Below are positions 36,630 to 64,000 of a stretch of DNA of 64,000 nucleotides, in pieces (the stretch's first letter is position 1; the number at the start of each line of letters is the position of its first letter). Where the stretch lies: NCBI GenBank assembly GCA_020523905.1, contig JAJAPZ010000007.1, positions 1 through 64,000 on the forward strand, written 5' to 3'. A model generated the notes under the pieces. The model ran no database searches and was not told where the DNA came from. It saw only the letters and a list, made by a program, of their open reading frames with translations. Both the position numbers and the translations under genes were made by a program. The DNA comes from Candidatus Obscuribacterium magneticum (lineage in GTDB: Bacteria > Elusimicrobiota > Elusimicrobia > F11).

Positions 36630-37036
36630 GGAAAAACGGTCCTCTTCAAGGAGGTGCCTTGGTTGAATTGGTCTTGGGAATGTGGATTTTCGCTTTTTTT
36701 ATTGGAGCTTTGGTCGCTTCCTCCCGCCTTTATCTTTTGAAGATCCGCTTGCATTCGGTCGCCCGCTTGGGGACGACACTGCAGGGCCTTGCGCTGGTTG
36801 ATGAAGGGGTCATTCAATCCGAGGTCAATGATTATTTATCAAGACAGACTCGTTTTCCCCTTGTCTCGGCCGATATCGTCATGGGCCGGTTTTTAGGGAC
36901 ACCCTCCTCGCGGTTTTACCAGCTCACTATGACCGAGGTTCATGGGCGTTATCAGGACACGTTTTTAAAATGGCTGGGGTTGCCGGAGGTGGCTTTTTCG
37001 GAAAGGACGGTCGTTCAAAAGGAGGGAAATCCATGA
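36626..37036 (+). CDS. Second TadE-like pseudopilin
   Basis: A 136-residue protein begins RKNGPLQGGALVELVLGMWIFAFFIGALVASSRLY. The G-x-LVELV pattern and single N-terminal helix match TadE-like proteins. It starts with GTG 36626, overlapping the previous stop (GTGA), and its own stop overlaps cpaB. The C-terminal part is soluble and strand-rich. It probably forms a minor subunit complex with the two preceding proteins. Confidence 0.7.
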   Translation: MRKNGPLQGGALVELVLGMWIFAFFIGALVASSRLYLLKIRLHSVARLGTTLQGLALVDEGVIQSEVNDYLSRQTRFPLVSADIVMGRFLGTPSSRFYQLTMTEVHGRYQDTFLKWLGLPEVAFSERTVVQKEGNP

Positions 37037-37776: not shown

Positions 37777-38168
37777 TGAGCATGCCCCAAAAGATAAAGA
37801 AATACGTTGTGACGGACGAACAGATCTGTCCCCAATGCGGGACGGCGAATCCGCATCATGCCTACTGCTGTCTTAATTGTTTCAAGGTCCTGCGTGAAAA
37901 GCCGAAAGTCCCCTTTTGGAAAATGGAAATCCGGTTGGATTTGTTGATCATTGTCGCGGTTTTTGTTGTTTTCGCCGGCATGGCCCTTCTCTTCAAACAG
38001 TGGCTGACCAATGTGGAGGCGGAAGTCACCTTGAATTTGACATCGGCGGAATACAACGTTTCTGTTGTCGCGGACAAAAGGAAGCGATCCGCGTCTCTGG
38101 AATTAAAAAAAGGCGGCAACGATTCGGATTCCACCTCCACGCCCACGGACGATTCTGCCCCGAAATAA
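37776..38168 (+). CDS. Zinc-ribbon membrane protein
   Basis: This 130-residue protein has a cytoplasmic zinc ribbon near the N-terminus (CPQCGTANPHHAYCCLNCF, two CxxC-type pairs) followed by one membrane helix (LLIIVAVFVVFAGMALLF). The external tail is acidic and Ser/Thr-rich and probably disordered. I know no named Tad component with this layout. The ATG shares one base with the cpaB stop, and a second in-frame ATG lies six bases on. It occupies the place where a secretin gene often sits. Confidence 0.65.
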   Translation: MSMPQKIKKYVVTDEQICPQCGTANPHHAYCCLNCFKVLREKPKVPFWKMEIRLDLLIIVAVFVVFAGMALLFKQWLTNVEAEVTLNLTSAEYNVSVVADKRKRSASLELKKGGNDSDSTSTPTDDSAPK

Positions 38169-38210
38169 ATTGGTCGTAATACAAATCCCCTCCTATCGTA
38201 ACCAAAAGCC

Positions 38211-38281
38211 GTCATACCGGCGAAAGCCGGTATCTAGGTCTTAAGGTTCAAAGCCTGGATTCCGGCTTTCGCCGGAATGAC
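38211..38281. repeat. REP-like inverted repeat, GCGAAAGC family, copy 2
   Basis: Arms at 38211-38237 and 38255-38281 are inverted copies with a few differences. The left arm has the pair ACCGGC/GCCGGT where the right has TTCCGGC/GCCGGAA, so each keeps its own stem around GCGAAAGC. It separates the zinc-ribbon gene from the TadA-type gene. Confidence 0.9.
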
Positions 38282-38344
38282 GAATATAATGAGACTCATG
38301 ATTTACCACACTGGCGTTATTCGTTGTTGATGGGAGGTGTCCTG

Positions 38345-40246: not shown

Positions 40247-40908
40247 TGGTCATTCTCTCTATCCTGATGGGACTCTGGGGCATGGGCCTTCTCTGGGATG
40301 CCTTTGGGGATCAGTCCGTCGACTTCTGTCGACGTGTCTTTTTTAACTTCTTGCGCTTTTTGAAAAGTTGTCGGCAGAAAAGGGTCATTAGGCGGCAGTG
40401 GCCGGATGCCGTGCAACTATTGGCCAGCGCCGTTCAAGCGGGATTTTCCATTGAAGGAGCCTTGGATGTGATGGTTCACGGGTCGCCGGACCCCTTGCGC
40501 GCTCATTGGGTTCAAAAAATCTCTGGGGCAAGCGGGTGGTTGCCTTTTGAGGCCCGGGTGCGGCTTCTTTTTGATGATCCCGGACTGTCTCTCATTCAAG
40601 CCACCCTCCTCATGGCTCATGAATCCGGCGGGAGGGCGGCCGATATCATCGAGGCCAGCGCCCGTTTGATGCGAAAAAAAATGGAGTTGAAGGAAAAGAC
40701 GAACGTGTTGACCGCCCAGGGGCGGTTGACCGCCTGGATTGTCGGACTTTCTCCCCTGGGAATGCTCGTGGCGTTGCAGGTGTTCGCTCCTGATTTGGTG
40801 CAACCTCTTTTTACGACCCGCGCCGGAGGAATGATTCTGGCCCTTGCGGCGCTACTGGTGGCGACGGGATTATTTATCGCTCATCGGATTGTCCGTATCG
40901 AGGCCTAA
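40243..40908 (+). CDS. tadB: TadB-like inner-membrane pilus platform protein
   Basis: This 221-residue protein has a hydrophobic N-terminal segment, the type II secretion F domain (RRQWPDAVQLLASAVQAGFSIEGALDVM, then LLMAHESGGRAADIIEASARLMRKKMELKEK) and two C-terminal helices. This is the usual TadB order, though the usual N-terminal region is short. It overlaps the ATPase stop (ATGA), and TadC follows nine bases after it. Confidence 0.85.
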   Translation: MMVILSILMGLWGMGLLWDAFGDQSVDFCRRVFFNFLRFLKSCRQKRVIRRQWPDAVQLLASAVQAGFSIEGALDVMVHGSPDPLRAHWVQKISGASGWLPFEARVRLLFDDPGLSLIQATLLMAHESGGRAADIIEASARLMRKKMELKEKTNVLTAQGRLTAWIVGLSPLGMLVALQVFAPDLVQPLFTTRAGGMILALAALLVATGLFIAHRIVRIEA

Positions 40909-40917
40909 GGAGAGAAG

Positions 40918-41676
40918 ATGGACGGATATTTTGAAATTATTCTGGTGTCGGCGGGGGCGGGGGTGGGCGTTCTTGCGATCCAAGCCTTTTATGATTGGCA
41001 GCGTGAAATTCACCTCCACAAGAAATGGGCGGAAGCCGGATTCAAAAAACTGAGACCTTCCTGGAACGTTAAATACAACGTGGTGGGTTTAGGCAGCATA
41101 GCCGGAGCCCTTGCATTTCTTCTTTTTCTTCCTCAGGAAACATGGCTTAGTTTGTTGGGGGGAATTTTAGGGGGCGGAGTTCCTCTTTATTATTGGCGGG
41201 AGGAGAGACGGCGGCGGCAGTGGAAAAATTATTGCGCCTTCCCCGATTTTCTGGAACTTATCGCCATGGCCTTGAGAGCCGGCCTGGTGTTGGAGAAAGC
41301 ATGGGAACTCGCTTTGCGTTATATGCCGCCTTCACCGCTCAAAGATGAGCTGGAGAAATCCTATCGTCATTTTTCTTCGGGACAGTCGAGAGACGAGCTC
41401 TTTGAGCGATTATTAAAAAGCCTCAACGATGAACGGCTGTCGCCGGCTCTGCGCTTTATCGCCCAATCGATGAGCCAGGGTCTTCCACTCCAGTCCGTCC
41501 TGTTGGAGCAAGCCGACATCCTTCGCACATCGGTCTATCTTTCTTTGGAGAAGAGGGCTCAGACGGCATCCATCCGGATGTTGTTCCCCATCGTTTTTCT
41601 AATCTTTCCCAGCCTTTTCCTCATACTTTTTGGATCGATCGCTCTCCAGTTTGCCCTACACGGCGGCCTTTTCTGA
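40918..41676 (+). CDS. tadC: TadC-like inner-membrane pilus platform protein
   Basis: This 252-residue protein has an N-terminal helix, a central pair of helices, the F domain (FPDFLELIAMALRAGLVLEKAWELAL, then LLEQADILRTSVYLSLEKRAQTASIRMLFPIV) and a C-terminal helix. It is the partner of the TadB-like protein in the Tad platform. The start has AAGGAGAG upstream. No further Tad gene follows; a repeat element ends the unit. Confidence 0.85.
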   Translation: MDGYFEIILVSAGAGVGVLAIQAFYDWQREIHLHKKWAEAGFKKLRPSWNVKYNVVGLGSIAGALAFLLFLPQETWLSLLGGILGGGVPLYYWREERRRRQWKNYCAFPDFLELIAMALRAGLVLEKAWELALRYMPPSPLKDELEKSYRHFSSGQSRDELFERLLKSLNDERLSPALRFIAQSMSQGLPLQSVLLEQADILRTSVYLSLEKRAQTASIRMLFPIVFLIFPSLFLILFGSIALQFALHGGLF

Positions 41677-48634: not shown

Positions 48635-51600
48635 ATGAACCCACGCGCCAAGGATAAAATACGTAAATTCATAGCGATTTTGGTAGCGGTTGCCCAGCTC
48701 CAAACGCAGGTGGCTTTTGCCGGCTTGCCGGGAACGATGGGCCTCCCTCCCGGATTCGATAAACTTCCCTTCGCCACCAAGTCCCTCGCCAAAAAACTTC
48801 TCTCCCAAGGCCTCGTTCTCTTCCGATCCCTCCCTTACTACCAGTTTCTCGAACCCCAGAGAAAGTCGGATCTGCCGGAAGAGTCGCGGACGACCCCGGA
48901 ACAGGCCTTGAGCCGCGACGAAAAGCAGATGAGCCTCTTGAGACAGCTGGAGGAGCTCCAGATCTTCCAGCAGGAGACCTTCAAGAACCGTCCGAAACTC
49001 CCCAACACCCCCATTGAGATCCTGGATGGCATCTCCACCTACAAGCTGAACGTCAATATCGCCAAAGAGATGAAGAAGGTCTACGAGGGCCGGGCTCAAT
49101 CCGAAAAGGAAATGAAAGAGGAGCTCGCATCCATGAAAAAAGCCATCAACGGCGCCGGCGGGTCCGTGCGCACCGAAAAAGACGGCTCCCACTCCTTCTT
49201 CCTTCATGGTCTCATGGTGGCCAACCGGGGAGCAAAGTATCTGGATGGAAACGGCCAGATCACCATCGTCGACACCCGCCGCATCAAGTACGACAAAGAG
49301 AAAAAGCTCCAGCGGGGCACCACCCGTATTTCCAAAGACAGCCTGGGGAATGTCTCCGTCACGGTGCGGTCGGACATCGAATACACCGATGACTCCAACC
49401 CCCACGGCAAGCAGATTGTGACCTCCTACAAAGACACGATCATGGATCCCAACGGGAACGTGCAGATTGTCGAGCGCGACAACATCAAATACCTGGAAGG
49501 GGCCGGGGTGGAGAAAAAGCAGCGCGGCCAGTTTGAGGTCTCCTACGACGAAGTCCGGACCGATTCCTTCAACAACAAGACGACGAAACGCTGGGAAAAC
49601 GGCGCCTATGTGAAACTCGGCGAGGAGTGGTACCTCACCGGCTACGATCAAAAAGAGACCGATGCCGACAAAAATACCAACCTCATCCACTGGCGCAGCG
49701 GCACCTATGCCTTTAACCCCAATTACAAGAAATACAAGACCATCAACTCCACCCGCCAGGAATATCTCCTCACCGGTTATGTGCAAGAGGTCACCGATCC
49801 CAAAGGGTTAAAGCGGACGGAAGTGTGGTCCGATGGAACCTACGACAGCCGCGACAATCTCGTATCTTTCGACCAGAGAGACTTAAACGCCGCGGGGGAA
49901 CTCCCCACCCTCATCCAATTCCGCAACGGTCGGTTCGACGCGTGGGGCCGTCAGATCGGCTATGAACGGAAGGAAACCAATGCCGACGGCTCTTACGTCA
50001 AAACGGTCCGATTGGACACCACCTACAACAAGCTCGGCGATGTGACCTCGTACTCCGACCGGATTGAAGGTTCGGACGGATCGCGCTATCGCGTGGACCG
50101 CTTTGGGATTGATTACAACCGGAAGCGCCAGCAGGTCGCTTACAAACAAACCACCATCGGTGAAGAGGGTCGGGTGACCTCGGTCACCTGGTCGGCCCTC
50201 CAGGAAGGTTTGAACAAGGAAGCGATTGCCGGGCCGGGCGAGAAGGGTTACGACGAGAATGGCCGACTTAAGGGGTATGAGGAAACCACCGAGGTCGACG
50301 GCCTCGTCATGGCCCGTCTTGTGACCGACATCACCTACGTGAAAGGGGATCAGGCCAGCTCCAAGGAGGTCACTCACACAACGGGACTCATGAACGGCGA
50401 GGATGTGGACGTCACCCGGACCGTCGACACCCAGCGCCTTTCCACCTCCTGCGGCAAAGATGGCGATGCCGCGGACTGCAGCGACGAGGGGGCCCAGGTG
50501 ATTGCCTATGTCGACCGGGTCACCGATTGGGGCATCGATAACAGGAGCAAAACCATCCTCCGCGACTTGCTCATGGAGATTGTCCGGAATTCGATCACCG
50601 TGGAGGGATTTTTTGAGAGGAAGACCACCACGGGAGGCTCCCAGCGGCGCGACGCCGGCCAGGATGATTCGGAAATCATCAACACGGTGAACACCACCCT
50701 CCAGACCAACACGGTCTACGGGGGTAGCGGCCGCGTGAACAGCTATACCCAAGTCACGACGGATTCCACAAATCCGGAGAAAGTCACCACCAGCCGATTC
50801 TCCCATCTTCTCTACAACCCGGCGGGCCAGCTGATCCAATCCCTTGAGCAAGCCCGCATTTCCTTCTTGAATGATCTGAACGATGTGAAGGATGGCGACC
50901 GGGGTTACGACATGGAAACCGAGCGGTCCAAAATCGCCTACGACGCCTTTAATCGCATATCCGATGTTCACACGGTCACCCGGACGATGACGCGTGAAAC
51001 GGATATCACCACCGTCGCCGACCGGACCAACGTGACCTATAACGGAATGGGAGACGTCGCCCGCTACACGGAACAAGTGGTGACCAACAGCACTCCCGGT
51101 TTGACCGAAACGACCCATTGGCAGGGAAAAGACTACAGCGCCCTGGGCCGGCTGCGGGAGTCGGTCCAAGAAGTGCAAAGTACGGGTGTCGACGAGCAAG
51201 GTTTTCGGTTGGATTCGTTGAGGTCCATCCATACCTCCGGCATGCAGTACGACGACCGGAACCGCCTGATCGGTTACAGGGAGGTGATCCGTAGTTCCGA
51301 TGCTCCCGGCGTGACAACGACCCATACCGTGGGAGATCCTCAAACTGGCGAAGCGGGAATCTTCTACGACACCCGCGATCATCAGTTGGTGTTAAAAGAG
51401 GTGACCGTTCGTGAAGGGGTGGGCGTGCAGGAACAAACGATCACCGAAAGGAATATGTGGCAGGTCGTGATCGATGAGGCTGGCATATTGCGGGGGTATA
51501 CGGAGGTTACCGAAACCTTATCGGACCCCGACGATTTGGTGACCACAAATGTGATCTCCAACATCCTTTGGTCGGATTGGGGAATGAATGAGCAGATCCG

Positions 51601-54600
51601 ATCCCGCCATACGGACACGACAAGCAATGAGGCAGAGGCGGTGGTGACGGCCGTCGATTATGATGTGACACAATTCGATGTTTATGGCCGGGCCATTGAA
51701 ACGCGCGAAGACATCCGTCGCACCACACTTGAAGACATCCGCCATACCAGTTCTGCGGTTGACATCCATACGATACGTTCGATCAATACCACGTTTAACG
51801 GCTTGGGCCAGGTGGGATTGAAGGTGGAGGTGACCCAGAATCCGGAGACCGGCGTCACCACACTTGTTAAGCAATCTTCATCTTATGACACCGAGGGCCG
51901 GTTGGCTGATCAAGTCGAGGAGAGTACGACGCGGGGAGCCAACCCCGCTTTCGAGAAGACCGTGACCACCCACAGTTCTCTTTATACTTACGATGCCGGC
52001 TCAGGACGGGTCCTGGGCTATGTTCAAGAGGTGACCTCGACCGACGCCCCCCTCCTGGTCACCACCACCCAGCGCTCTGGGATCGACTACAACCTTGAAG
52101 GGCAGCAGCTCGGTTGGAAGGATTTCGTTCATGAGATCGGAGGGGATATCGACCATACCTTTACCACCGAAAGAAGCGATATGGCTTATAACCGGAACCG
52201 CCTCGTGAAGTTTAAGGATGTGACTTACGATGGCGAAAAACAGGAACCCAATGAATTGACCCGAACACAAACCCTGGAAACGTTTTTTAACGAGGAAACC
52301 GGCCTTGTGATGCAGACAGAGCAACGGACGACCGAAACAGGTCTCATGACAACGCCGGAGACGGGGCCGTCCGGTACGGGAGCTCTCCTTAATCATATCC
52401 GCGAGGTAATCCGCTCTGACATCGAATACAACACCCAGGGGCAGGAGACCGATTACCGGGAAACCATCCATGACAACCAGACGCCGGAGCTCACCGAAGA
52501 GACGGCTCGTACCAATGCCGTTTATACAGGCGGACTTCTCACCTCCTATACCGAGACTTCACACCGCTTTTCGGCGGATGAGTCCTTCGATACCACCGTT
52601 CGGGTTGATCATACGCTTGGTTATGACGGCTTTGGGAGGCTACAGGAGGACATAAACACCGAACACGACGCTTATGGCGCCGTTCTAGATCATATCCGAC
52701 GTCAGTGGTACGATGGAACAGGCCGGAACAATAAGACGTGGGAGGAAACAAAACGTCGAGGCACCGACGTTGTCCAGACCGTTCACCGGTCGAATATCCG
52801 CTACACCCAAAGAGGGGATCAAGCTTCCTACACCGAAACGCAGCAATCAACCGAGCGGCCGGATGTGACCGTCACCGTCGAGTGGCAGGCCCGCGGGGGG
52901 ACGCGGGAGGGCTACAATGAAATGGGTCAGTTGGTTGGATTCCATCAAGTGGAGACAAGCGAAGGAGAAACGCTCAACCGGGCCGTGGAAACCGACCGCT
53001 CCCAAATCCAGTACACGAACGTGGGCCAAATCGCCCGCTATAACGAGGTTCGGCACGACAGCGCAACGCCGGACCTAGAAGAGCAGGTCCTTTGGACGGG
53101 AGACTATAACGGCAAAGGCCTTCTGGCACAAAATAACGTGACGACACATCGACTCGACCGGTCACCGGGGGGGACTCTTTTGGATGTGACGGTTGAACAG
53201 GATATTCAAAATAGTTACGACGCGCTCGGCCGGATCAACCACAGCATCACCGAAAGCCATGAGACCTCTCCCGGTAGTATTATTAACGCAACGACCCGTG
53301 AGGAGAAATTCGACATTCAGTACCTTCAAGATCAGCAGGTCGGTTACGCCCTTCGCAACTGGGATGCCTACAATATCTCCCACAATATCTTCAGTACCAC
53401 CATCCGCCGGAACGTTGTTTATGACGATTTAAGACGCCTCATGGAATATGACGAAGAAGTGGATGCCCCGGTTTACGACGGTTCAAATAAATTGTTGCCG
53501 CGGCTCACCCATTGGAGTGCCGAGGATTATAACAGCGACGGGCAACTGACGGGTTTCGTGAAAGATGAAATAGAGTATGACGAAGTGGAGCCCGTTCAAT
53601 TCAACCCCGCCGAAATGACGCCCCGTTCCGAAACGCAAACCGTTCACAGCCGAGTTCAATACAACACGGACGGAACCGAGGCCTCTTATTATGAATCCAG
53701 TCACCAAACATGGCGGGATGGGGCCGAGACGTTGTCGGAGGTGACCCGGTCCGGGATTCACAACAATGGGTTGGGGCAGATGTCGGCGTGGCGGGAGATG
53801 GGCACAAACACCACCTTCCAAGACGGCGTGCTTCTGCGCGAATTGGCCGTTGACACCACGTGGAAAGCCGGCGGACCGGGCTGTGAAGGCGGATATCTTC
53901 GGAGTGGCCGCATGGGAGCGTATCAGCAGGTTGTCAATCAGGTCTCTCTGCGGGATATTTTCCAGGTCACTGAAACCACCCAATGGTCGGGGGCGGTGTA
54001 TAACAAGGAAGGATCCCTCGTCACCTACAATCAAAACGTCCTGAGACGGGGTTTGAGTCAGGAAAAAATGATCATCCCTACGGAATGGAGCCTTTTGTCC
54101 GAGCTTCAAAAGGCCGAATACCTGAGCCGTTTCGTGTATGTATTGGATGACGGCCGCGCCGTCGCGTGGCGGGATCTTCCGACACTGGCCCGGGTGGATT
54201 TGGTGGCCATTGGGCGCGCCCGAATCAACGGGAAAGACGTCCGACTGCGGGCCATGGTCGTTCAAAGTCGCCTGGATTCCACGGTGGAAACCCAGCGTCT
54301 TACAACCCTCTATAACGAAATGGGCCTCACGAAGGAGTACAACGAGTTGGTGAAAGAGAACTCACTCAAAACCAACCGCGAATGGAAGGGACTCGCTTTC
54401 AACGCCAAAGGGCAGGCCATGCAGGTTCACGAAGTCACCGAAGGGCCGACCGGAGAGATCACCACGGCCGATCGCGACCGGATCCAATACGATCTTCACA
54501 ACCGCATGCTGGGCTACCGGGAGGAGTCGCATTCTGATTTTTCTCCGGCCTTAACGACCCGACAGATTGTTTTAAACAGTTATGACGCGTTGGGGCGGCT

Positions 54601-57600
54601 CTCCGATCAGGAGCGGTCTGTTCATGAATCCGGCGGGGGGCTCGATCGGCACTCGACGGTTATTTTGCGGGATGTTTCCTACGACCGGTTCGACCGTCAG
54701 CAGGGTTACAACCAGGTGCAGTTCGACGGGTTGGCGGTTGTGATCGGACCCCGGAGCTATCAATGGGATGACCGGTTTAATGAAGCCAAAAGAAATATGG
54801 ATGTTTCCCCAGACTGGGGAGACCTTTTCTTTTATGGGGATAGTTTGGGCGACGCCGATCGCCGCACTCTCACCGCGGGTCGAGCTTTGGCGGATCATTT
54901 GGTCACGGTCACCGCCATGCGGGGGATCAATTATGACCTTATGGGCAACCAGTGGGGCTACTTAAGAGTTCAGCGTCAGGCGGGACATCAAGCCGGCGGC
55001 ACAACCGGCGGAGCCGCCGTTTTTGAATCGGCCCAGTCTACCGTGCGGTCCGGCTCGCAGTATTACCATTCGGGGCGGCAGGCGGGGTTGGCGAGCGGCT
55101 ATAAAGAGGTCACAAGGACAAACGCCTCCGCCATCGAAACCATTTCCCAAACACGCGGCATTCAATACGACAAGGGCCGCCAGACAAGCCTCTCCATTCA
55201 GACAGAGCTTAAAGGGGAGGTCGTTGTCAGGGGCGAGAGGAAGGAGATCCAGAAAAAGACGACGACGGCCCGGCACGGCATCCTGTACAACGCCGCCGGA
55301 CTTCAGTCCTATTCCATTGATGACACGGTGGAGAACGGCCTTCGCAGCACAACCGTTACCGAGAACCTTCAATTTGACGCCAAGGGGCGCGTGATGAAAA
55401 CGGAATCCACGACGTGGGTGGAAGGGGAGACCACGCGCTTGGCCTATTTCCTGGATGATCAGGAGATCGATCCCTCCCTTGTCGCCCTGTTGGAGAAAAA
55501 TCCCGACCTGCCCATCCAAGGCATTGAAATCCGCGAGGTACCCCACCGGGTGAGCGAGAAAACCGTCGTCACCCGCCAGGCGATTGAATACGACGCCTTG
55601 GATCGCCAGGTGGCGTACACGGAGGTGACCCGTTCTCCCGGGGGTGTCCTCACAGTCACAAAAGTAGAAGGCGTTGAATTCGACAAGTTTGGCCGCCAGA
55701 CCCGTTATCATTCGGTGACGCAAACCGAAGGGTGGGATCTGACCTATTACATTGACGGCGTCGAAGTGGACGCGAAGACGCTCCTCGATCTGTTGAACGG
55801 CCGGACGGCCCTTCAGGATTTTCTGGATGGGGCGGAGCTCGATCCCCAGATCCTCATCGATCAGTTGGATGGGGGGAGCGTCCTGGATTTATTGCCGACG
55901 GGACAGATGACGATTTGGCAAGCCCTTTCACTCGGACTCATTGTCACGGGACGGAAAAAGACCCGCATCGAAGATCCCGACCATTTGGATCCGGATCGGG
56001 CCAAGGACTCCACCCGTTACGATATTGAGTATGACGCGAATGGGAACATGTCCCGTTACCAAGAAATAATGACGGATTTCAAATCGGGGATTCTGAGCCA
56101 GGAGACCCAAGTCCGGATGACGTATAACGAATTCAACAAGGTGGACTCCCAAGTTTCCGCCACCGAGACCTCTTACGGCGTTCATCAGGACGGACAACCC
56201 GATGTCCCTCCTCAATCCCAGAGTTTTATGGAGAGTCGTATTTTTTATGTTTATGACGGACGGGGAAACCTGAAAGGCGCCGGCGGGGGTTCCGTCACCA
56301 CCAGCGAAGATTTTGTCGCAGAAAGTCGCACCCGCCAGGTCAGCGAGGATTACTTCAGCCTGATCGGCTCCCAGGCGAAGAACGTGTTCTCCAAAGTGAC
56401 GTCCCGGACCGTGAATGGGGACGGCGTCGTCATTGAAGGGAAGGCCACGCGCTTGAACTCCTACGACCTCCGGGATGGTTCCGCTCTGGCGTCTTATGAG
56501 ATTGGGACATCCGATACATACGATGCGGTGGCGAAGACCTTGACCCACACCAAGAGCCGGCAGATTTCAACAGCGGTCAACGGCGAACTGAAAACGTTAT
56601 TGACTCTCAACGACAACCTGACCTCTTACCCTGACAAATCGGAGCGGAAGAACCAGCGCGTGAGCCAGTCGTCTATGGTGAATCATTATGGTGAGGATGG
56701 CCACCTCGCCTATGCCGACGGCTTCGAAGGTGCCTTCGCCAATGACGGTCATGACAACTTGACCTATAGCCGCTCTCAACAAACTTATGAAGCCGTGGGC
56801 GATCGGGCGCGATTGAAGACCGTGCGCAATGATTCTTTGGGTGAACGTGCGGATGGGAAAAGCCTTTCCCGAAACCACAGCGTGATCGATTACGACCTAC
56901 ACCAGAGCGGGCCCCTCATCGGGGTCGTGAAAAGCGCGCTGGAGACGGGCCACTTCGCCAATCGCGAGTGGGTCATCACCACGGATGAAACCGGCAAGAT
57001 TAAAGACAGTGGTTATCTGTTTTCGAAAGGAGACATCACAAATCTCTACGATGAGGTCTATTTGGGGGAGGCGAAATTGACCCGCTCCGTTGTGAAGACG
57101 GATTCCTGGAGAGCCGACGGGACCTTCACGCACGATGAAAAGTTTACGGAGTATTTCTATGACAGGCTGGGTCATGTGACAGGGGCGGAAGGGGCGGGTG
57201 AGGATACCCGGCATCGCGAGCTGGAAGATGGGGAACTGAGCTCTGGGGGTGTCAGCACAACGAGCGTGTATAACGAGAAAGGGGATCTTTACACCCTGAC
57301 CACCACCCACACGCTGATGTATTACCAAGATGTTATCAACAACCAAGCACGCCTGACGAAGTCCGTCTCTGATTCAGATACGGTTTATCCGTTTGGTTCG
57401 GTAGCGGACACTCAGCATATCGAGGTGACTTACGGAAATGACCTCGACACCGGGGAGGTTCTCGAGGCCCGGGGCACGGGACATTTCAATAATCACGAAT
57501 GGGGCTATTCGGATGGAGTGATCGTCAATGTCAGCAATACAATGAACGGGCAGATTCGGCAGGCCTACGAGGTCATCCGCGGCGAAGCGAAGCTGGTCAA

Positions 57601-60600
57601 AACAACCTCCTGGAGTACCACCAACAACCGGGACGGTTCGTACGTCATCATCGATGAGGCCAATCCCAGCGTCACGACCTATGTTTATAACGACAAGGGT
57701 CAGCTTGTGGGTGGCCAGTCCTCCAGCCGTTCCCGTTCAAACGAAATGGGGACAAGAAACGCCGCGGATCCCGCGGCCATTGAAATCAGCCAGACGGTCA
57801 CCGTGACGCAACAGAAGATTGTGGCCATCATGGGAGAGACCCGCACCCTGTGGTCGGAATCGGCGTCGGACTCCGTCCAATTGGATGCCAATGGAGATCC
57901 CCTGGGGTCACGCACAGGGGATCCGGAAGGATCCAAATCCCATCAAAAGATCCGCGTGGATTACACCTACGACATGAAGACGAGCCGGGTCCTCGGGGGC
58001 CGGGGCCACGGGACGACTCAATCGATGGATTATTATGGGAATGTGTCCTTGGGAACCATCGATCAGGAATTTATCGGCAAGGCCAACCAGGCCCGCTTGT
58101 TTAAATCCACCACTGTCACGGACACGGAAAATGTGGACCGGACCTACAGTCATCAGCAGACGGAGATGGTGAATAATTATGACGACAATGGCTTGTTGAT
58201 GGGGGCTTCTTCCATGGGGGCCTTTGTCAATGTGAATGAGTCGGGCGATACATCAGACGGGCAGATTTCCCAAACCTTCCGCGTGTTGAACGGGCAGGCC
58301 AAGCTCAACACCAACACCACCATCACAAATTCGGCGGGGTCCGATGGGGGGACGAGCTATCAAGCGGTGACGGTGCGTTATTCCTATAACGGGTTGGGAT
58401 ATCTCACCGGGGCCCATGTGGGGGAAGGCGACGGCTATTTGGAATCGACGGACTCCGAAGGCAACCAGACCCGCGGCAACATTCGCCAGACGTATGAAAT
58501 CATACTCAACCAGGCCCGCCTGACCTCCTCCACCACCGTCACCCGCATGGAGCATGTCGATGGGGCCTTTACCGATCAGACCCTGGTGATCTTTTATGAA
58601 AACGATTCCATCAAAGGCTTGCTCCAAAACGCCTACAGCCGGGATCCCCTAGATCCCACTACACCGGAGGGTGAAAACCACTGGGAGACCTGGTACATCG
58701 ATGGAGAGGGCCACAGGCAGGAAGTCCATGGGACAATCGTCCAGACCTTTGATCTCAACGTCATCACTCGCACAGGTCAGGCCAAGGTGGTGGAGTCCAA
58801 GAGCTTGGCGGATAGGGTGACCTACAACACCTTGACCCATGAATTTGGAGGAGAGCTTCCCATCCATCCGCACATGAATAGCTATTCGTTGAATACCTAC
58901 GATGAGCGGGGATCCCTCACCAGCGCCTTCTCCGACTCCCGGCGTGTCAACATGGCAGGAGAGATCACCCGCCAAATCCAAATCGCCCTTTATACGACGG
59001 ACGGCGACGGAAATCGCGTTTCGGGTCACATTTATGGGTCCACCTATCGCGAGGGCGCGGATGCAACGGGCACGGGCACAACGAGAATCGAATCGACCGA
59101 TTTTGACACGACCGAGGAGTACACCCTTCTTCCCTACAAAACCTTTATGGGTCAAATGGTGGAGCGCGCCCGCCGCACCAAATCCTTCACCCGCTCAACG
59201 ACCGACAGCATGGATGGCTCCGACAACCACACGGAAACCGAGGTCTTTTACGCGTATAACCGGGACGGCCGCATGGTCGAGGAAAACGAATCGGGTTTCA
59301 GGACCTATGGCCGGGGGTTCTCCATTGGCCATTCGGGGTTTGGTTCTGACCGCAATCCTTGGGATGAGGTCCGCACCGTCATCGATCAGGCGTATGAGAT
59401 CATTCCCATCGGGATCGGCGTGGCGAAACTGAAGAAGAACGTTTCAACGTCCAATACCTATCACTACCGCTTGGATGCGGCCGGCCAGCCGGCCGCCTGG
59501 TTGGGAATGTTGGGAATGAGGAGCCGCCTGGAGGCGCGGCATGGACGGCTCGGCCGGAATGGCGAAACCATCGAGCCGACGACGTTGGACGGAATCGATC
59601 CTCCATTCGGACCCACCGGCCTTAGGCTGGCCATCGAAGGGGGGCGGGACGGCACGACCAACCGGCAAATCCTGACCGTGACGTATGAGAACAGCCGAAG
59701 CGCCCGGGTATTGAGGGGGCAGGGGATTGGCGAGTTCCATCAGGAAGACCGCTACGGAAACCGGACCGAGGGGAAGATTTATCAGGATTATGCGGGGATC
59801 GCCAATCAGGCGCGGTTGAGAACAAACCGGACGATCACAGACACGATCAACCGGGACGACTCCACCAATCACCAGGAAATTGTGACCGAGTACCGGTTGA
59901 ATCAACGGACGGGCCGCATCTTAAACGTTCGGGGCACCGGAGACTTCAATTCCAATGATGGCCATGGGAATGTCACCGTGGGGAGCCTCCAGCAGACTTA
60001 TCACCCGGGCTTTATCGACCGGTATCAGCTCGCCCGCGTCCTTTCCACGATCACCGACAGCACCTCCTCCAATCGAGACGGGTCGCTGACCGTCTCCCAT
60101 AATGTCGTGGATAATACCTATGACGAAACGGATCACGTGGGCCTCTTAATCGGAGTCGATGGATACGGAAACAGCACCACCAACGATCACGGGAATATCA
60201 CCGAGACTTCTCAAATTCAATTGTACGACCTCACCCTGTTGCGTGAGACCGGCCAGGCGCGCGTCCGGGAGCAGAGGTCCCATTCCACCACCACCAACCG
60301 GGATCGTTCCCGCAGTTATCAATCTATGTTGATCACCAACGATTACGATGCCTTTGATGCGAGCCTGGAGAATACGGAAGGGCATGGCCTCCTTCGAACC
60401 GATGATGACCGCGGAGGGTTTACAGTGGGTCTCATTACTCAGATCTATGATCAGGACGTCCTCGATGCGACGGGCCAGCCCAAAGTCTCGAAGACACTAA
60501 CAGAGGTTGTCACCGCGGACGAGACGGATTTTGATAGCGCCACTTTTCAGCCCGCTTTGAGAGCGGATGTGCCGGCTGATGATTACAACCAGAGGGCAGC

Positions 60601-63600
60601 CTTTGAGGGTATTGTCAACCATCTGAAACAGTATAACCCGGACGATCCGACCCATAGAAATTCGGATCGGACTTGGGTCTTTCAAAGTTCGACCGTTGAA
60701 TACGGATACGACGGCTTGGGGCGTCTTAAATCCGCCACGGGGAGCGGGTCCAGCCTGAGTGACGACGGCTTCAGCCGCGACGGCATTCACAACATCACCG
60801 TCGGCACCGTTCAGCAGATTTATTCCATTATCAACAATCAGGCGAAAGTGGTGGAGAACCGGTCGCACACCACAACGCACGCCACCGATCAGGTAGAAGG
60901 AGACCGCAATGTGCAGGATGTCACGGTTTATAACGCCTATGATGACAATGGCGTCCTCATGGCGGTTCGGGCCTCCGGCCTGTTCACCTCCATCGACACG
61001 TCCCGTAACGTCACCCGCGGGCTCCTCACCCAGATTTATGATCAGGAGCTTCTTAAGAACACGGGCCAAGCTAAAGTGAAAGACAGCATCACCCATAGTT
61101 GGGGCTTCAACCGGGATGGATCCATTGTCAAGCAGAAGATGGTCGTCACGACCCGTTACGACGAAGATGGGAGGATTCTAGATGACTCCGATGGAAAGGG
61201 GAACTTTATCGGCGTCCGGGGCGAAGGGACATCGGAAGCGGACGACGGGTTTGGAAACATCACGTTTTCAAATGTCACCCAGTACTATAACCGGGAGTTA
61301 ACTATTCAGTTGGGCCGCGGGATACTTCGGAATACCAAGACCGGAGGGACGGCGTACAACCGGGATGGGTCCTCCGCCGTCATCGAATCAAACCAGGAGA
61401 ACGCCTACACCCCGGGGGGAAAACTAAGCAACGCGACGGGCTGGTCCAGCAGTCTCCTCGATGATGGGTTTGGCAATTACACGTTAAGCTACACGAATCA
61501 GGAATACGACGAAATTATTTTGAGCCGGACCGGACTTTTGCGTGTATCCAAGGCCGTCACCAGCACGAACCCGGCGCGAGGCGATGGAACGACGGCAGGG
61601 GCCAAAAATCAGGACGGCTCATATACAGTACAAAATATGACCGTCACGTACGCCTACGATGCGAGTGGCGTGGCGGTGATGGAAGGGGGCCAAGGCCGCG
61701 AAGGCCGGACCTCCGGCATCGGCGATGGATTCAGCGATGATGGTTACGGGAATAAAAATGCGTCCGTCATTAATCAGACCTATGTGATCCTCAACAATGC
61801 GGCCCGAGTCAGCGGAACGGATTCCCAAAACTTCACCTTGGATTCCAATTATGTGGACGGTCAGGCTCGCGTTCTTGGGCTCAACCGGGACCGGACCTGG
61901 AGTCTGCAGTGGAGCCACACGGACAACTTTTACAATGCGGACGGGAAGCTCGTCGCCAGCGATGGGTGGGTGAAAGGCGTTTCTTCCGACAGTTGGGGAT
62001 CCCTGGCGGAAGGGCAGGCCATCAAGACAATGGGTTGGGACAATGCTGTTGGTACGGTTGCTTCAGGCCATCTCACATGGTCAGAGTCGGATCAGGTCTA
62101 TACCGGTCTCTTCGGTCAGCCCAAGCTCATTCGCCAGACAACCAATTCCTGGTCCACTTCGGTGGACGATGTGGATTCCTTCCAGCGGGTGACGGTGTCC
62201 TACGAGTACGATCCCTCGGGGCAGATGCAGGGAGCCAAAGGCGAAGGTTTTACGCAGAGTGAGGATCACTACGAGAACACAACCTTTGGGACACTGGAGC
62301 AAACGTTCTTAGGAATTCGGGGACAGGCGAGACTGGTGGAGTCCCGAAGCGAGATTGACAACCGGAATGTCGATGGGTCATCTGGTCACCAAAGCATGAC
62401 GGTCACGACGTCGTACGATGCTCTCGGCCGTTACGAATCGGCCGTCGGGCGTGGGACCTCCGACAGCGATGATGGTTACGGGAACATCACCACGGGGTCC
62501 ACCGTCCAAGAATATGATCGGAACCTTCTCACCGTCTACGGCCAGATGAAGGTATTAAAAACCACATCGCAATCTTTCACCCAGAACCATGACAAATCAT
62601 CCACGCGCCAGACGGCCGTCGTCGACTATGAATATAGCGCTGAAGAAGATGTTGTATCGGGATACCTGGTGAATGCGGGATTGTTGGTAGGGGCTCACGG
62701 GACCGTCGATTTCAACTCTGATGATGGCTCGAAGAATATAACCACCGGCTACACATTGCAGGATTATGACCTGGCTTTGCTTGGAAACACGGGCCTTCTT
62801 CGTGTGAAGAAGGCGTCGACCTATGCCAGAACCGACAATTTGGACAGAAGCGTTATGACGCAAGTGACCATTGTCGATTACGCCTACGATGGGCAAGGGG
62901 GAATTCGAGCCGATCGCACCACCGGCCAAACCGCTTCTATCGCTTACGATGGATTCGGGAATACGACGAGATCAGGAGCGTTTGTCCAAGAGCCGGGGTC
63001 ACGGGAGCTCACGATTACAGATGTTGGAGGGACACAGACGTATGGCGAATTCATGGGTCAGGCTCGCCTTGTTCAATCCATCACCACTTCACATACGTTG
63101 GACGATTGGGATCCCCACGGGGCGACGAATGATCAAACCACCGTTTTGACCAACACCTATGATTCGCGGGGCCGCTTGGTGGCGGCCTATGGCTCGGGTG
63201 GATTCACCTCCCATTCCGGCACTGCCCCCGACAACATCGCCTTTGACACGACCACGGGTCAAGTGCGGCAGTTTTACGTCATCCTGAACGGCCAGGCCAA
63301 ACTCCAGGCCGCTGAGACATCAACGGCCACGCAAGCCCGAGACCGATCCCGCTCCGATCAAAGGATGGTCGTCACTTATTCCTATAATAATGACGGCGTG
63401 CTCGAAGGGGCCGCCGGCACCGGAGAAGGGACCGGTGACGACGGCTATGGGAATGTCACCGTCTCCCGGATTTTTCAGTTCTATGAAATCCTTTTGGGCC
63501 AGGCTCGCCTCACAAGGTCCGTCACAGACACGACCTCCACTAACCGGGATGGGTCCTCCAATGTCCAGATCCAAACCCTGGACAATCGTTATCAAGAGTC

Positions 63601-64000
63601 AACGGGGCTTCTGGCGGCTGCCCTCGGCCAGGCGCAGTTCACCTCAAACGACGGATACGACAACATAACCCTGGGAACGGTGAGCCAGACCTACTTCATC
63701 CACCGCAATCAGGCCAAGATTTTGGAAACCCGCACCTTGAGTGACACGCGTAACCTCAATAAATCCACTCAGCACGCCGAAACAACAGTTCATTACACCT
63801 ATCAACCCCTCAGCGGGGAACCGAGAGCGCTGCGATTGGTTGATGCCGATGGCCAGGTGGATTTCACCTCCCGCGATCAATATGGAAACAGAACCGTCGG
63901 CCACACCGAGCAGGATTACGATGAAGGCGTCTTGGCCACGACGAACCAGGCCAAAGTCAATTGGACCAGAACCATTTCGGACACCACCAACTTGGATGGA
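48635..64000 (+). CDS. Giant YD-repeat-like exported protein (partial, at least 5122 codons)
   Basis: One frame stays open from ATG 48635 to the window edge without a stop. A signal peptide (FIAILVAVAQLQTQVAFA, cleavage before GLPG) is followed by a helical region to about residue 170. From about 49.2 to 56.3 kb come repeats with cores such as YDALGRL, YNTQGQ, YDKFGRQ and partners such as GYREVT and YTEVT, like YD/RHS repeats. From about 56.6 kb the units change to NGQAKL/NNQARL, NRDGS, YSYNGLGYLTGA and GNVTVG motifs every 70-90 residues, at least 20 copies. Cysteine is nearly absent. The ribosome-binding site is weak (AGGGG about 18 bases upstream). It is probably a surface fibre or shell. 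The C-terminus is unseen. Confidence 0.85.
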   Translation, partial: MNPRAKDKIRKFIAILVAVAQLQTQVAFAGLPGTMGLPPGFDKLPFATKSLAKKLLSQGLVLFRSLPYYQFLEPQRKSDLPEESRTTPEQALSRDEKQMSLLRQLEELQIFQQETFKNRPKLPNTPIEILDGISTYKLNVNIAKEMKKVYEGRAQSEKEMKEELASMKKAINGAGGSVRTEKDGSHSFFLHGLMVANRGAKYLDGNGQITIVDTRRIKYDKEKKLQRGTTRISKDSLGNVSVTVRSDIEYTDDSNPHGKQIVTSYKDTIMDPNGNVQIVERDNIKYLEGAGVEKKQRGQFEVSYDEVRTDSFNNKTTKRWENGAYVKLGEEWYLTGYDQKETDADKNTNLIHWRSGTYAFNPNYKKYKTINSTRQEYLLTGYVQEVTDPKGLKRTEVWSDGTYDSRDNLVSFDQRDLNAAGELPTLIQFRNGRFDAWGRQIGYERKETNADGSYVKTVRLDTTYNKLGDVTSYSDRIEGSDGSRYRVDRFGIDYNRKRQQVAYKQTTIGEEGRVTSVTWSALQEGLNKEAIAGPGEKGYDENGRLKGYEETTEVDGLVMARLVTDITYVKGDQASSKEVTHTTGLMNGEDVDVTRTVDTQRLSTSCGKDGDAADCSDEGAQVIAYVDRVTDWGIDNRSKTILRDLLMEIVRNSITVEGFFERKTTTGGSQRRDAGQDDSEIINTVNTTLQTNTVYGGSGRVNSYTQVTTDSTNPEKVTTSRFSHLLYNPAGQLIQSLEQARISFLNDLNDVKDGDRGYDMETERSKIAYDAFNRISDVHTVTRTMTRETDITTVADRTNVTYNGMGDVARYTEQVVTNSTPGLTETTHWQGKDYSALGRLRESVQEVQSTGVDEQGFRLDSLRSIHTSGMQYDDRNRLIGYREVIRSSDAPGVTTTHTVGDPQTGEAGIFYDTRDHQLVLKEVTVREGVGVQEQTITERNMWQVVIDEAGILRGYTEVTETLSDPDDLVTTNVISNILWSDWGMNEQIRSRHTDTTSNEAEAVVTAVDYDVTQFDVYGRAIETREDIRRTTLEDIRHTSSAVDIHTIRSINTTFNGLGQVGLKVEVTQNPETGVTTLVKQSSSYDTEGRLADQVEESTTRGANPAFEKTVTTHSSLYTYDAGSGRVLGYVQEVTSTDAPLLVTTTQRSGIDYNLEGQQLGWKDFVHEIGGDIDHTFTTERSDMAYNRNRLVKFKDVTYDGEKQEPNELTRTQTLETFFNEETGLVMQTEQRTTETGLMTTPETGPSGTGALLNHIREVIRSDIEYNTQGQETDYRETIHDNQTPELTEETARTNAVYTGGLLTSYTETSHRFSADESFDTTVRVDHTLGYDGFGRLQEDINTEHDAYGAVLDHIRRQWYDGTGRNNKTWEETKRRGTDVVQTVHRSNIRYTQRGDQASYTETQQSTERPDVTVTVEWQARGGTREGYNEMGQLVGFHQVETSEGETLNRAVETDRSQIQYTNVGQIARYNEVRHDSATPDLEEQVLWTGDYNGKGLLAQNNVTTHRLDRSPGGTLLDVTVEQDIQNSYDALGRINHSITESHETSPGSIINATTREEKFDIQYLQDQQVGYALRNWDAYNISHNIFSTTIRRNVVYDDLRRLMEYDEEVDAPVYDGSNKLLPRLTHWSAEDYNSDGQLTGFVKDEIEYDEVEPVQFNPAEMTPRSETQTVHSRVQYNTDGTEASYYESSHQTWRDGAETLSEVTRSGIHNNGLGQMSAWREMGTNTTFQDGVLLRELAVDTTWKAGGPGCEGGYLRSGRMGAYQQVVNQVSLRDIFQVTETTQWSGAVYNKEGSLVTYNQNVLRRGLSQEKMIIPTEWSLLSELQKAEYLSRFVYVLDDGRAVAWRDLPTLARVDLVAIGRARINGKDVRLRAMVVQSRLDSTVETQRLTTLYNEMGLTKEYNELVKENSLKTNREWKGLAFNAKGQAMQVHEVTEGPTGEITTADRDRIQYDLHNRMLGYREESHSDFSPALTTRQIVLNSYDALGRLSDQERSVHESGGGLDRHSTVILRDVSYDRFDRQQGYNQVQFDGLAVVIGPRSYQWDDRFNEAKRNMDVSPDWGDLFFYGDSLGDADRRTLTAGRALADHLVTVTAMRGINYDLMGNQWGYLRVQRQAGHQAGGTTGGAAVFESAQSTVRSGSQYYHSGRQAGLASGYKEVTRTNASAIETISQTRGIQYDKGRQTSLSIQTELKGEVVVRGERKEIQKKTTTARHGILYNAAGLQSYSIDDTVENGLRSTTVTENLQFDAKGRVMKTESTTWVEGETTRLAYFLDDQEIDPSLVALLEKNPDLPIQGIEIREVPHRVSEKTVVTRQAIEYDALDRQVAYTEVTRSPGGVLTVTKVEGVEFDKFGRQTRYHSVTQTEGWDLTYYIDGVEVDAKTLLDLLNGRTALQDFLDGAELDPQILIDQLDGGSVLDLLPTGQMTIWQALSLGLIVTGRKKTRIEDPDHLDPDRAKDSTRYDIEYDANGNMSRYQEIMTDFKSGILSQETQVRMTYNEFNKVDSQVSATETSYGVHQDGQPDVPPQSQSFMESRIFYVYDGRGNLKGAGGGSVTTSEDFVAESRTRQVSEDYFSLIGSQAKNVFSKVTSRTVNGDGVVIEGKATRLNSYDLRDGSALASYEIGTSDTYDAVAKTLTHTKSRQISTAVNGELKTLLTLNDNLTSYPDKSERKNQRVSQSSMVNHYGEDGHLAYADGFEGAFANDGHDNLTYSRSQQTYEAVGDRARLKTVRNDSLGERADGKSLSRNHSVIDYDLHQSGPLIGVVKSALETGHFANREWVITTDETGKIKDSGYLFSKGDITNLYDEVYLGEAKLTRSVVKTDSWRADGTFTHDEKFTEYFYDRLGHVTGAEGAGEDTRHRELEDGELSSGGVSTTSVYNEKGDLYTLTTTHTLMYYQDVINNQARLTKSVSDSDTVYPFGSVADTQHIEVTYGNDLDTGEVLEARGTGHFNNHEWGYSDGVIVNVSNTMNGQIRQAYEVIRGEAKLVKTTSWSTTNNRDGSYVIIDEANPSVTTYVYNDKGQLVGGQSSSRSRSNEMGTRNAADPAAIEISQTVTVTQQKIVAIMGETRTLWSESASDSVQLDANGDPLGSRTGDPEGSKSHQKIRVDYTYDMKTSRVLGGRGHGTTQSMDYYGNVSLGTIDQEFIGKANQARLFKSTTVTDTENVDRTYSHQQTEMVNNYDDNGLLMGASSMGAFVNVNESGDTSDGQISQTFRVLNGQAKLNTNTTITNSAGSDGGTSYQAVTVRYSYNGLGYLTGAHVGEGDGYLESTDSEGNQTRGNIRQTYEIILNQARLTSSTTVTRMEHVDGAFTDQTLVIFYENDSIKGLLQNAYSRDPLDPTTPEGENHWETWYIDGEGHRQEVHGTIVQTFDLNVITRTGQAKVVESKSLADRVTYNTLTHEFGGELPIHPHMNSYSLNTYDERGSLTSAFSDSRRVNMAGEITRQIQIALYTTDGDGNRVSGHIYGSTYREGADATGTGTTRIESTDFDTTEEYTLLPYKTFMGQMVERARRTKSFTRSTTDSMDGSDNHTETEVFYAYNRDGRMVEENESGFRTYGRGFSIGHSGFGSDRNPWDEVRTVIDQAYEIIPIGIGVAKLKKNVSTSNTYHYRLDAAGQPAAWLGMLGMRSRLEARHGRLGRNGETIEPTTLDGIDPPFGPTGLRLAIEGGRDGTTNRQILTVTYENSRSARVLRGQGIGEFHQEDRYGNRTEGKIYQDYAGIANQARLRTNRTITDTINRDDSTNHQEIVTEYRLNQRTGRILNVRGTGDFNSNDGHGNVTVGSLQQTYHPGFIDRYQLARVLSTITDSTSSNRDGSLTVSHNVVDNTYDETDHVGLLIGVDGYGNSTTNDHGNITETSQIQLYDLTLLRETGQARVREQRSHSTTTNRDRSRSYQSMLITNDYDAFDASLENTEGHGLLRTDDDRGGFTVGLITQIYDQDVLDATGQPKVSKTLTEVVTADETDFDSATFQPALRADVPADDYNQRAAFEGIVNHLKQYNPDDPTHRNSDRTWVFQSSTVEYGYDGLGRLKSATGSGSSLSDDGFSRDGIHNITVGTVQQIYSIINNQAKVVENRSHTTTHATDQVEGDRNVQDVTVYNAYDDNGVLMAVRASGLFTSIDTSRNVTRGLLTQIYDQELLKNTGQAKVKDSITHSWGFNRDGSIVKQKMVVTTRYDEDGRILDDSDGKGNFIGVRGEGTSEADDGFGNITFSNVTQYYNRELTIQLGRGILRNTKTGGTAYNRDGSSAVIESNQENAYTPGGKLSNATGWSSSLLDDGFGNYTLSYTNQEYDEIILSRTGLLRVSKAVTSTNPARGDGTTAGAKNQDGSYTVQNMTVTYAYDASGVAVMEGGQGREGRTSGIGDGFSDDGYGNKNASVINQTYVILNNAARVSGTDSQNFTLDSNYVDGQARVLGLNRDRTWSLQWSHTDNFYNADGKLVASDGWVKGVSSDSWGSLAEGQAIKTMGWDNAVGTVASGHLTWSESDQVYTGLFGQPKLIRQTTNSWSTSVDDVDSFQRVTVSYEYDPSGQMQGAKGEGFTQSEDHYENTTFGTLEQTFLGIRGQARLVESRSEIDNRNVDGSSGHQSMTVTTSYDALGRYESAVGRGTSDSDDGYGNITTGSTVQEYDRNLLTVYGQMKVLKTTSQSFTQNHDKSSTRQTAVVDYEYSAEEDVVSGYLVNAGLLVGAHGTVDFNSDDGSKNITTGYTLQDYDLALLGNTGLLRVKKASTYARTDNLDRSVMTQVTIVDYAYDGQGGIRADRTTGQTASIAYDGFGNTTRSGAFVQEPGSRELTITDVGGTQTYGEFMGQARLVQSITTSHTLDDWDPHGATNDQTTVLTNTYDSRGRLVAAYGSGGFTSHSGTAPDNIAFDTTTGQVRQFYVILNGQAKLQAAETSTATQARDRSRSDQRMVVTYSYNNDGVLEGAAGTGEGTGDDGYGNVTVSRIFQFYEILLGQARLTRSVTDTTSTNRDGSSNVQIQTLDNRYQESTGLLAAALGQAQFTSNDGYDNITLGTVSQTYFIHRNQAKILETRTLSDTRNLNKSTQHAETTVHYTYQPLSGEPRALRLVDADGQVDFTSRDQYGNRTVGHTEQDYDEGVLATTNQAKVNWTRTISDTTNLDG

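What the first reader, a model, noticed from the sequence alone, without database searches (positions are those of the whole stretch)
48635..64000. Giant exported repeat protein of more than 5100 residues, still open at the window edge
The sequence shows a single uninterrupted plus-strand frame with a signal peptide and dozens of tyrosine/glycine repeats. Giant proteins have been reported in Omnitrophota and some predatory or symbiotic bacteria. Inference: this is a surface structure, perhaps for attachment, adhesion or prey/host contact. YD/RHS proteins often end in a toxin or other effector, so the unseen C-terminus matters. It is one of the most unusual objects in the window.
Basis: partly seen in the sequence, partly recalled or inferred. 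Interest (0 to 1): 0.88.

Follow-up and report, generated by a model that had tools for sequence, protein, structure and literature searches.

The report
Giant secreted YD-like beta-ribbon protein
An uncultured Elusimicrobiota bacterium carries a real, evolutionarily conserved gene for a secreted protein of more than 10,500 amino acids (18,143 in a relative), built almost entirely of tyrosine/glycine beta-hairpin repeats and apparently ending in an enzyme-like tip, probably for acting on neighbouring cells.

Summary
The frame opening at 48635 stays open through the window edge to the end of its contig (at least 10,524 aa), with no stop, no Ns and no DNA-level tandem repeats. A relative with a 100%-complete genome carries the whole gene: 18,143 aa, stop included, aligning with all of ours (43% identity). 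Every 500-aa window is conserved (39-53%), and 74 of 81 repeats match the repeat at the same position best, so length and repeat order are under selection. The 3' end of our gene sits at the start of another contig (C88), identified by homology and conserved downstream synteny. Host phylum: Elusimicrobiota, not Omnitrophota. Anatomy: Sec signal peptide; conserved N-terminal domain; ~35-aa YDxxGRL hairpins; at least 84 copies of a 69-aa four-strand unit (AlphaFold pLDDT 84; best PDB match a teneurin); a non-repeat C-terminus with a JAMM-like E...HTH...[ST]xxD motif that recurs near the C-termini of giants from another family. RHS core and immunity gene are absent. A Tad-pilus locus lies upstream. 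Best reading: a secreted giant YD-like scaffold carrying a C-terminal hydrolase for cell contact, perhaps predation. Existence and conservation are shown; enzyme and role are inferred.

The parts
48635..48721 (+). Sec signal peptide of the giant protein (residues 1-29, predicted cleavage AFA|G)
   Evidence: Sequence; sole hydrophobic segment; conserved with its QTQxxFAG-type end in the same-family copies
48722..49711 (+). Conserved N-terminal domain (about residues 30-359), no Pfam or NCBIfam match
   Evidence: 48-68% identity among five same-family copies; related N-termini in other families of the class; no family
49712..56137 (+). N-terminal repeat array (residues ~360-2500): ~35-aa YD-type hairpins, consensus YDxxGRLxGYxEVTxSxxxxxxTTTxRSxI
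   Evidence: Self-built HMM, 20 hits; Y[DN]xxG[RKQ][LIVM] 22 in the whole 10,524-aa protein vs 0.1 expected
56138..64000 (+). Main repeat array inside the window (residues 2502-5122, continues to residue 10524 on the contig): 69-aa units, consensus GQARLVKSTTESDTSNRDGSYSHQESTVTYAYDRNGRLVGASGTGTSLSNDGFGNLTVGEITQTYDVIN
   Evidence: 84 HMM copies on the contig; AlphaFold pLDDT 84 for five units; repeat found in 16 of 341 phylum genomes
48635..64000 (+). Whole giant ORF as seen in the window; open at the edge, continues 16,207 bp to the contig end; its 3' end lies on contig C88
47252..48277 (+). FecR-domain protein immediately upstream, syntenic with G002
   Evidence: Pfam PF04773 E=8.6e-11; synteny
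36626..41676 (+). Tad/Flp pilus locus: TadE-like (weak), RcpC/CpaB, TadA-type ATPase, two T2SSF (TadB/TadC-type) proteins; syntenic with G001 and G002 beside the giant gene
   Evidence: Pfam; synteny

Best explanation
The gene encodes a Sec-exported giant protein (expected length about 18,000 aa from its orthologue) whose bulk is a continuous up-and-down beta-sheet made of long YD-type beta-hairpins: a ribbon or wide tube with perhaps ten times the strand number of a teneurin shell. It works as a cell-surface or extracellular scaffold that carries a C-terminal JAMM-like hydrolase (most likely a peptidase) to neighbouring cells, used together with the adjacent Tad pilus during contact, attachment or predation. 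Shown: the ORF, its conservation, signal peptide, repeats, orthologues, C-terminal motif and synteny. Predicted: the beta-sheet fold. Inferred: tube shape, enzymatic activity, target, export route across the outer membrane, and predatory use.
For: At least 10,524-aa frame; complete 18,143-aa orthologue aligned with all of it; 39-53% identity in every full 500-aa window, third codon position differing 0.65 vs 0.36 at the second; 74/81 repeats best-match the colinear repeat; signal peptide and no TM helix; YD motif 22 vs 0.1 expected; 5-repeat model pLDDT 84, four ~13-residue strands per unit; top PDB fold match a teneurin-2 structure, E 1.8e-5, and RHS protein YenC2 among the weak sequence matches (E 0.14); C-terminal HTH...T..D invariant in four genera; single such motifs within 627 aa of the C-terminus in three giants of another family, and single HExxH within 812 aa in four giants; related giants of G001 end in Ntox10 or an alpha/beta-hydrolase region with a weak Tle3 match; Tad locus and c-di-GMP/PilB genes on the two sides, syntenic.
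Against: No Pfam or NCBIfam family fits the repeats robustly; Foldseek TM to teneurin is only 0.12, so global shape is not established; no RHS core. Pfam JAB models do not recognise the C-terminus and its AlphaFold model failed (pLDDT 34). No expression, secretion or predation data. The middle of our gene is missing from the assembly, so joining C115 and C88 rests on homology and synteny.
Confidence: 0.5

Rival explanations
1. A purely structural surface coat or adhesin: the giant beta-ribbon attaches the cell to surfaces or partners, and the C-terminal domain is an anchor, processing peptidase or cell-wall tether rather than an effector.
For: Only a signal peptide and repeats are certain; giant adhesin-like ORFs are proposed in Omnitrophota (PMC10066038); the C-terminal domain is conserved rather than polymorphic among orthologues; Tad pili are adhesion organelles.
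Against: Catalytic-type residues HxH and T..D are invariant; peptidase-like motifs recur at the C-termini of several repeat giants; sibling giants end in Ntox10 or lipase-like domains.
Confidence: 0.27
2. A classical polymorphic RHS-type toxin: repeats form a closed shell around a C-terminal toxin that kills competitors, with an immunity gene for self-protection.
For: YD motif and YD-like local fold; RHS-linked JAB toxins with E, H[ST]H, S, D are described (Tox-JAB-2, PMC3482391); Ntox10 in a sibling giant.
Against: No RHS core or DPxG motif; the next gene downstream is a convergent response regulator in three genera, no immunity gene; the C-terminus is conserved across genera rather than swapped.
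Confidence: 0.13
3. Gliding/T9SS-type giant adhesin comparable with SprB, exported by a type IX system.
For: PorP/SprF-like (25133-26185) and CHU_C-domain (28181-29494) genes lie upstream.
Against: SprA_N (PF14349) has no hit over cut-off in seven genomes of the class; the C-terminus of the orthologues matches no T9SS sorting domain.
Confidence: 0.06
4. Assembly artefact or decaying gene: stops lost by misassembly, or the frame no longer used.
For: MAG is 71% complete, 13% contaminated; the contig ends inside the gene.
Against: Independent full-length orthologue in another genus, purifying selection throughout, colinear synteny, no near-identical DNA repeats to collapse.
Confidence: 0.01

Closest known systems
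YD/RHS-repeat proteins (TcB-TcC, Rhs effectors, teneurins)
   Same: Y[DN]xxGRL hairpin signature; predicted continuous up-and-down antiparallel sheet; a teneurin-2 structure is the top PDB fold match; effector-like domain after the repeats
   Different: Hairpins of ~35 aa (RHS units are about 20 aa, own knowledge); ~17-19 residues per strand-plus-turn against ~10 in teneurin (78 strands in ~800 residues, PMC5851990); an order of magnitude larger; below the Pfam cut-off; no RHS core, no immunity gene
Omnitrophota giant ORFs (e.g. Velamenicoccus archaeovorus, 39,678 aa; PMC10066038)
   Same: Single ORF above 20 kb, few annotated domains, Tad systems in the same genomes, predatory/symbiotic context proposed
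   Different: Different phylum; no TM helices besides the signal peptide (V. archaeovorus giant has 42); conserved between genera, whereas most Velamenicoccia giant ORFs are described as poorly conserved
Huge proteins of Elusimicrobiota counted in UniProtKB (PMC11573180)
   Same: Phylum noted as enriched in proteins above 5000 aa
   Different: That survey could assign no COG to the huge proteins of this phylum; repeat architecture, frozen repeat order and C-terminal motif are described here
RHS-linked toxin JAB domains (Tox-JAB-1/-2, PMC3482391)
   Same: E, H[ST]H, [ST]xxD residues at the C-terminus after YD-type repeats
   Different: No match to DUF4329 (PF14220) or Prok-JAB (PF14464); longer HTH-to-TxxD spacing in this family; conserved rather than polymorphic
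SprB-type T9SS giant adhesins (own knowledge)
   Same: Giant secreted repeat protein; SprF-like gene in the neighbourhood
   Different: No T9SS sorting domain, no SprA found over cut-off

Membership tests
YD/RHS repeat proteins | YD signature (Y[DN]xxG[RKQ][LIVM]) repeated far above chance | tested here: met
   22 vs 0.1 expected; E. coli RhsA control 6 vs 0.0
YD/RHS repeat proteins | Match to curated models PF05593 / TIGR01643 over cut-off | tested here: inconclusive
   PF05593 15.1 bits vs 22 cut-off (not met); TIGR01643 15.9 vs 15.8 in one segment only, E 0.014; RhsA profile comparison probability 16%
YD/RHS repeat proteins | Up-and-down beta-sheet spiral (YD shell) | tested here: inconclusive
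   Confident antiparallel sheet; teneurin-2 best hit E 1.8e-5, probability 0.82, but TM 0.12
YD/RHS repeat proteins | RHS-associated core domain / autoproteolytic DPxG motif closing the shell | tested here: not met
   No NCBIfam RHS core in the last 4,354 aa of the G001 orthologue or in the G002/G003 C-termini; no DPxG[hydrophobic] motif
Polymorphic toxins | Immunity gene directly downstream | tested here: not met
   Next gene is a convergent response regulator in G000, G002, G003; in G001 other ORFs intervene and were not annotated
Polymorphic toxins | Related N-terminus and repeats with different C-terminal effectors | tested here: inconclusive
   Three G001 giants share related N-terminal repeats but end in JAMM-like, Ntox10 or alpha/beta-hydrolase regions; orthologues however keep one C-terminus
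JAMM/JAB metallo-hydrolases | E ... H[ST]H ... [ST]xxD residues | tested here: met
   HTH and T..D invariant in four genera; the upstream E of E-x-AG seen by eye in all four, not aligned in G002 because of an insertion; motif also at the C-termini of G022, G015, G006 giants
JAMM/JAB metallo-hydrolases | Match to Pfam Prok-JAB or DUF4329 | tested here: not met
   No hit on the giant C-terminus at E up to 10
JAMM/JAB metallo-hydrolases | JAB fold | tested here: inconclusive
   Model from two sequences, pLDDT 34; not usable
Omnitrophota-type giant ORFs | Multiple transmembrane helices in a >20-kb ORF | tested here: not met
   ORF >31 kb, but only the signal peptide is hydrophobic
T9SS giant adhesins (SprB type) | T9SS translocon and sorting domain | tested here: not met
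   No SprA_N over cut-off in 7 genomes; no sorting domain at the orthologues' C-termini

The most novel reading that the evidence does not exclude
These Elusimicrobiota proteins form a distinct class of giant YD-derived scaffolds (up to at least 18,984 aa): long-hairpin beta-sheets in which hundreds of strands have individually conserved positions, forming a ribbon of several hundred nanometres or a tube of about 100 nm that presents or delivers a C-terminal metallo-peptidase, a contact weapon working with Tad pili and unlike closed Rhs cocoons.
Probability: 0.2. Interest if true: 0.88.

Novelty: new variant of a known kind. Interest (0 to 1): 0.68.

Why it matters
Giant bacterial proteins are mostly known as counts of long ORFs without function or even proof of conservation. 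Here a single family has a full-length orthologue, whole-length purifying selection, position-by-position conserved repeats, a confidently predicted local fold, conserved gene neighbours and a specific C-terminal residue set to test, which turns 'what are giant bacterial proteins for' into testable questions. The YD link would extend a fold known as a closed toxin shell to structures an order of magnitude larger.

Tried and rejected
An N-terminal scan of genome contigs with a single protein found nothing; the C-terminal alignment found two named records. Search for the missing middle of the gene in the own assembly found only C115 itself. A staggered self-alignment for AlphaFold aligned by overlap, not by repeat register, and was dropped for a non-overlapping one. 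AlphaFold of the C-terminus failed. PDB sequence searches with C-terminal or repeat profiles gave only chance-level hits, apart from the suggestive YenC2 at E 0.14, which ranked below unrelated Homer chains. Plasmid search: no match. T9SS export and Tox-JAB-2 model membership were tested and not met. Contig C122, a second N-terminus in the own assembly, was considered as a paralogue; same gene order and 68% identity to G003 (closer than to C115) point to a contaminating relative. The frame break in G002 is a gap of unknown bases, not a shown frameshift. Lambda K was fetched as a possible JAB yardstick and not used.

Full report
OBSERVATION. The reported frame is real. From ATG 48635 the + strand reads 5122 codons to the window edge without a stop. 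The window is the first 64,000 bp of an 80,207-bp contig; on the extended contig the frame is still open at the end, giving at least 10,524 aa with no N. Given the GC of 56%, the chance of no stop is about 1e-175. TRF finds no DNA-level tandem repeats in this region or in the corresponding stretches of two relatives, so repeat collapse or false joining is not a natural explanation.

FULL LENGTH IN RELATIVES. Searching relatives with the first 600 aa found the same gene in three other genera of the family (63, 53 and 53% identity) and more distant forms in other families of the class. In G001, a genome rated 100% complete, it is one uninterrupted ORF of 18,143 aa (C10:215939-270367, minus). Our 10,524 aa align with its residues 2-9968 in one piece at 42.9% identity. 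Identity lies between 39 and 53% in every full 500-aa window, and codon positions differ 0.42/0.36/0.65, with four-fold sites at conserved residues differing at 66%: the whole length is selected as protein. For 74 of 81 repeats the best-matching repeat in G001 is the one at the same position, and for 75 of 83 the best G001 match scores higher than any other repeat of the same protein. Repeat order has therefore been kept since before the genera split.

THE MISSING END. The G001 C-terminus detects C88:468-1067 in our own assembly, at the very start of that contig; the same domain is in ORFs at contig starts of G002 (C23) and G003 (C521). Downstream genes follow in the same order: response regulator, histidine kinase, response regulator-GGDEF, MshEN-PilB ATPase, HD-GYP-type protein, PilZ-like (G001 has extra ORFs in between, and in G003 only the first three genes were read). 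Upstream, the order of genes from 33.5 to 46.6 kb is shared with G001 and G002, and with G002 up to the gene directly before the giant. So C115 and C88 carry the two ends of one locus; the middle (about 7,000 aa in G001) was not found in this 71%-complete assembly. That joining is inference from homology and synteny.

HOST. The host is thus in Elusimicrobiota, not Omnitrophota. The 69-aa repeat occurs in 16 of 341 genomes of the phylum, all in the same class, in five families, in frames of up to 18,984 aa (G015:C20) and 17,466 aa (G006:C22), which begin at contig edges and may be longer.

ANATOMY. Residues 1-29: Sec signal peptide, conserved among five copies; there is no other hydrophobic segment in 10,524 aa. 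Residues ~30-359: conserved domain without a family match. Residues ~360-2500: a repeat of ~35-aa units, consensus YDxxGRLxGYxE...TTTxRSxI. Residues 2502-10524: 84 copies of a 69-aa unit, each apparently two such hairpins (reading by eye). The motif Y[DN]xxG[RKQ][LIVM] occurs 22 times against 0.1 expected from composition. AlphaFold on five units with six window rows gives pLDDT 84 and pTM 0.73: antiparallel strands of about 13 residues, four per unit. Foldseek's best PDB match is a teneurin-2 structure (E 1.8e-5, probability 0.82), but TM is 0.12, so only local geometry is shared with any confidence; most other matches are beta-barrel proteins with similarly long strands.

IS IT YD/RHS? By signature and local fold it resembles one; by curated models it is not a clear member: PF05593 stays at 15.1 bits (cut-off 22), TIGR01643 reaches 15.9 (cut-off 15.8) once, YenC2 appears at E 0.14, RhsA at 16% probability. 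The RHS core is absent. Teneurin's shell has 78 strands in ~800 residues (PMC5851990); at about 18.8 residues per strand the G001 protein would have roughly 830 strands in its ~15,600 repeat residues (my estimate).

C-TERMINUS. After the repeats come about 1-2 thousand non-repeat residues. The last ~180 aa hold the most conserved stretch, PFHTHxGxPxxFxGxARFAPTxxD, preceded by E-x-AG: the residue set of JAMM/JAB metallo-hydrolases. Pfam JAB families do not detect it and its model failed. Independent support: giants of another family sharing these repeats (G022, G015, G006) each hold exactly one H[ST]H...[ST]xxD in 15-19 thousand residues, 265-627 residues from the C-terminus (HTHPKGNFASQTAQD, HTHPDSPMPTARD, HTHPDLPMPTAED), against 0.02-0.08 expected; and G022, G015, G006, G008 each hold exactly one HExxH, all within 812 residues of the C-terminus. 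Two further G001 giants with the ~35-aa repeat end in Ntox10, above the Pfam cut-off, or carry an alpha/beta-hydrolase region with a weak Tle3 match. The pattern is a repeat scaffold with hydrolase-like C-termini. JAB domains behind RHS repeats are described as toxins (PMC3482391), but here no immunity gene follows and the domain is conserved rather than swapped.

CONTEXT AND ROLE. About 7 kb upstream lies a Tad pilus locus (RcpC/CpaB, TadA-type ATPase, two T2SSF proteins), syntenic in G001 and G002; downstream are c-di-GMP and PilB genes. Tad systems plus giant ORFs are features highlighted for predatory or symbiotic Omnitrophota (PMC10066038), and a Tad pilus kills prey by contact in Myxococcus (PMC12075869). 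This makes contact-dependent use plausible, not shown. The route across the outer membrane is unknown; a type IX system is not supported.

VERDICT. A genuine, conserved giant secreted protein; a new, very large variant of YD-type repeat proteins, with a probable C-terminal metallo-hydrolase. That Elusimicrobiota are rich in huge proteins was known (PMC11573180); I found no description of this family in the papers searched, though the giant-gene preprint cited by others is not in the library.

Noticed in passing
G000:C122 (L048) 5780-7642: A second giant-gene N-terminus in the same assembly, with a gene order like window 44975-48635 but 68% identical to G003 and 53% to the window copy: probably a contaminating relative (MAG contamination 13%).
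   Followed up: yes
L050 3957-6956 (G001:C6:178957-208887): A 9,977-aa giant of G001 with the ~35-aa repeat carries an Ntox10 polymorphic-toxin domain (E 4.9e-7, above cut-off) within its last 1000 aa, followed by a further enzyme-like stretch.
   Followed up: partly
L052 3-6764 (G001:C17:23341-46764): A 7,808-aa giant of G001 with the ~35-aa repeat and an alpha/beta-hydrolase region with a weak Tle3 phospholipase match in its C-terminal part.
   Followed up: partly
L101-L103 (G015:C20:2-56953) and L105-L108 (G006:C22:93995-146392): Open frames of 18,984 and 17,466 aa truncated by contig edges, with the 69-aa repeat and C-terminal HTHP...PTxxD plus HExxH motifs.
   Followed up: partly
window 25133-26185 and 28181-29494: PorP/SprF-like membrane protein and a CHU_C (type IX signal) domain protein upstream, although SprA_N was not found over cut-off in seven genomes of the class: which system uses the CHU_C domain is unclear.
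   Followed up: partly
window 42838-44883: CHASE2-adenylate/guanylate cyclase, 60-73% conserved in G001 and G002 beside the giant locus; possible cyclic-nucleotide control.
   Followed up: no
window 29506-33438: 1,310-aa protein without any Pfam match, 40% identical to a G002 protein in the same place beside the Tad locus; possible pilus-associated surface protein.
   Followed up: no
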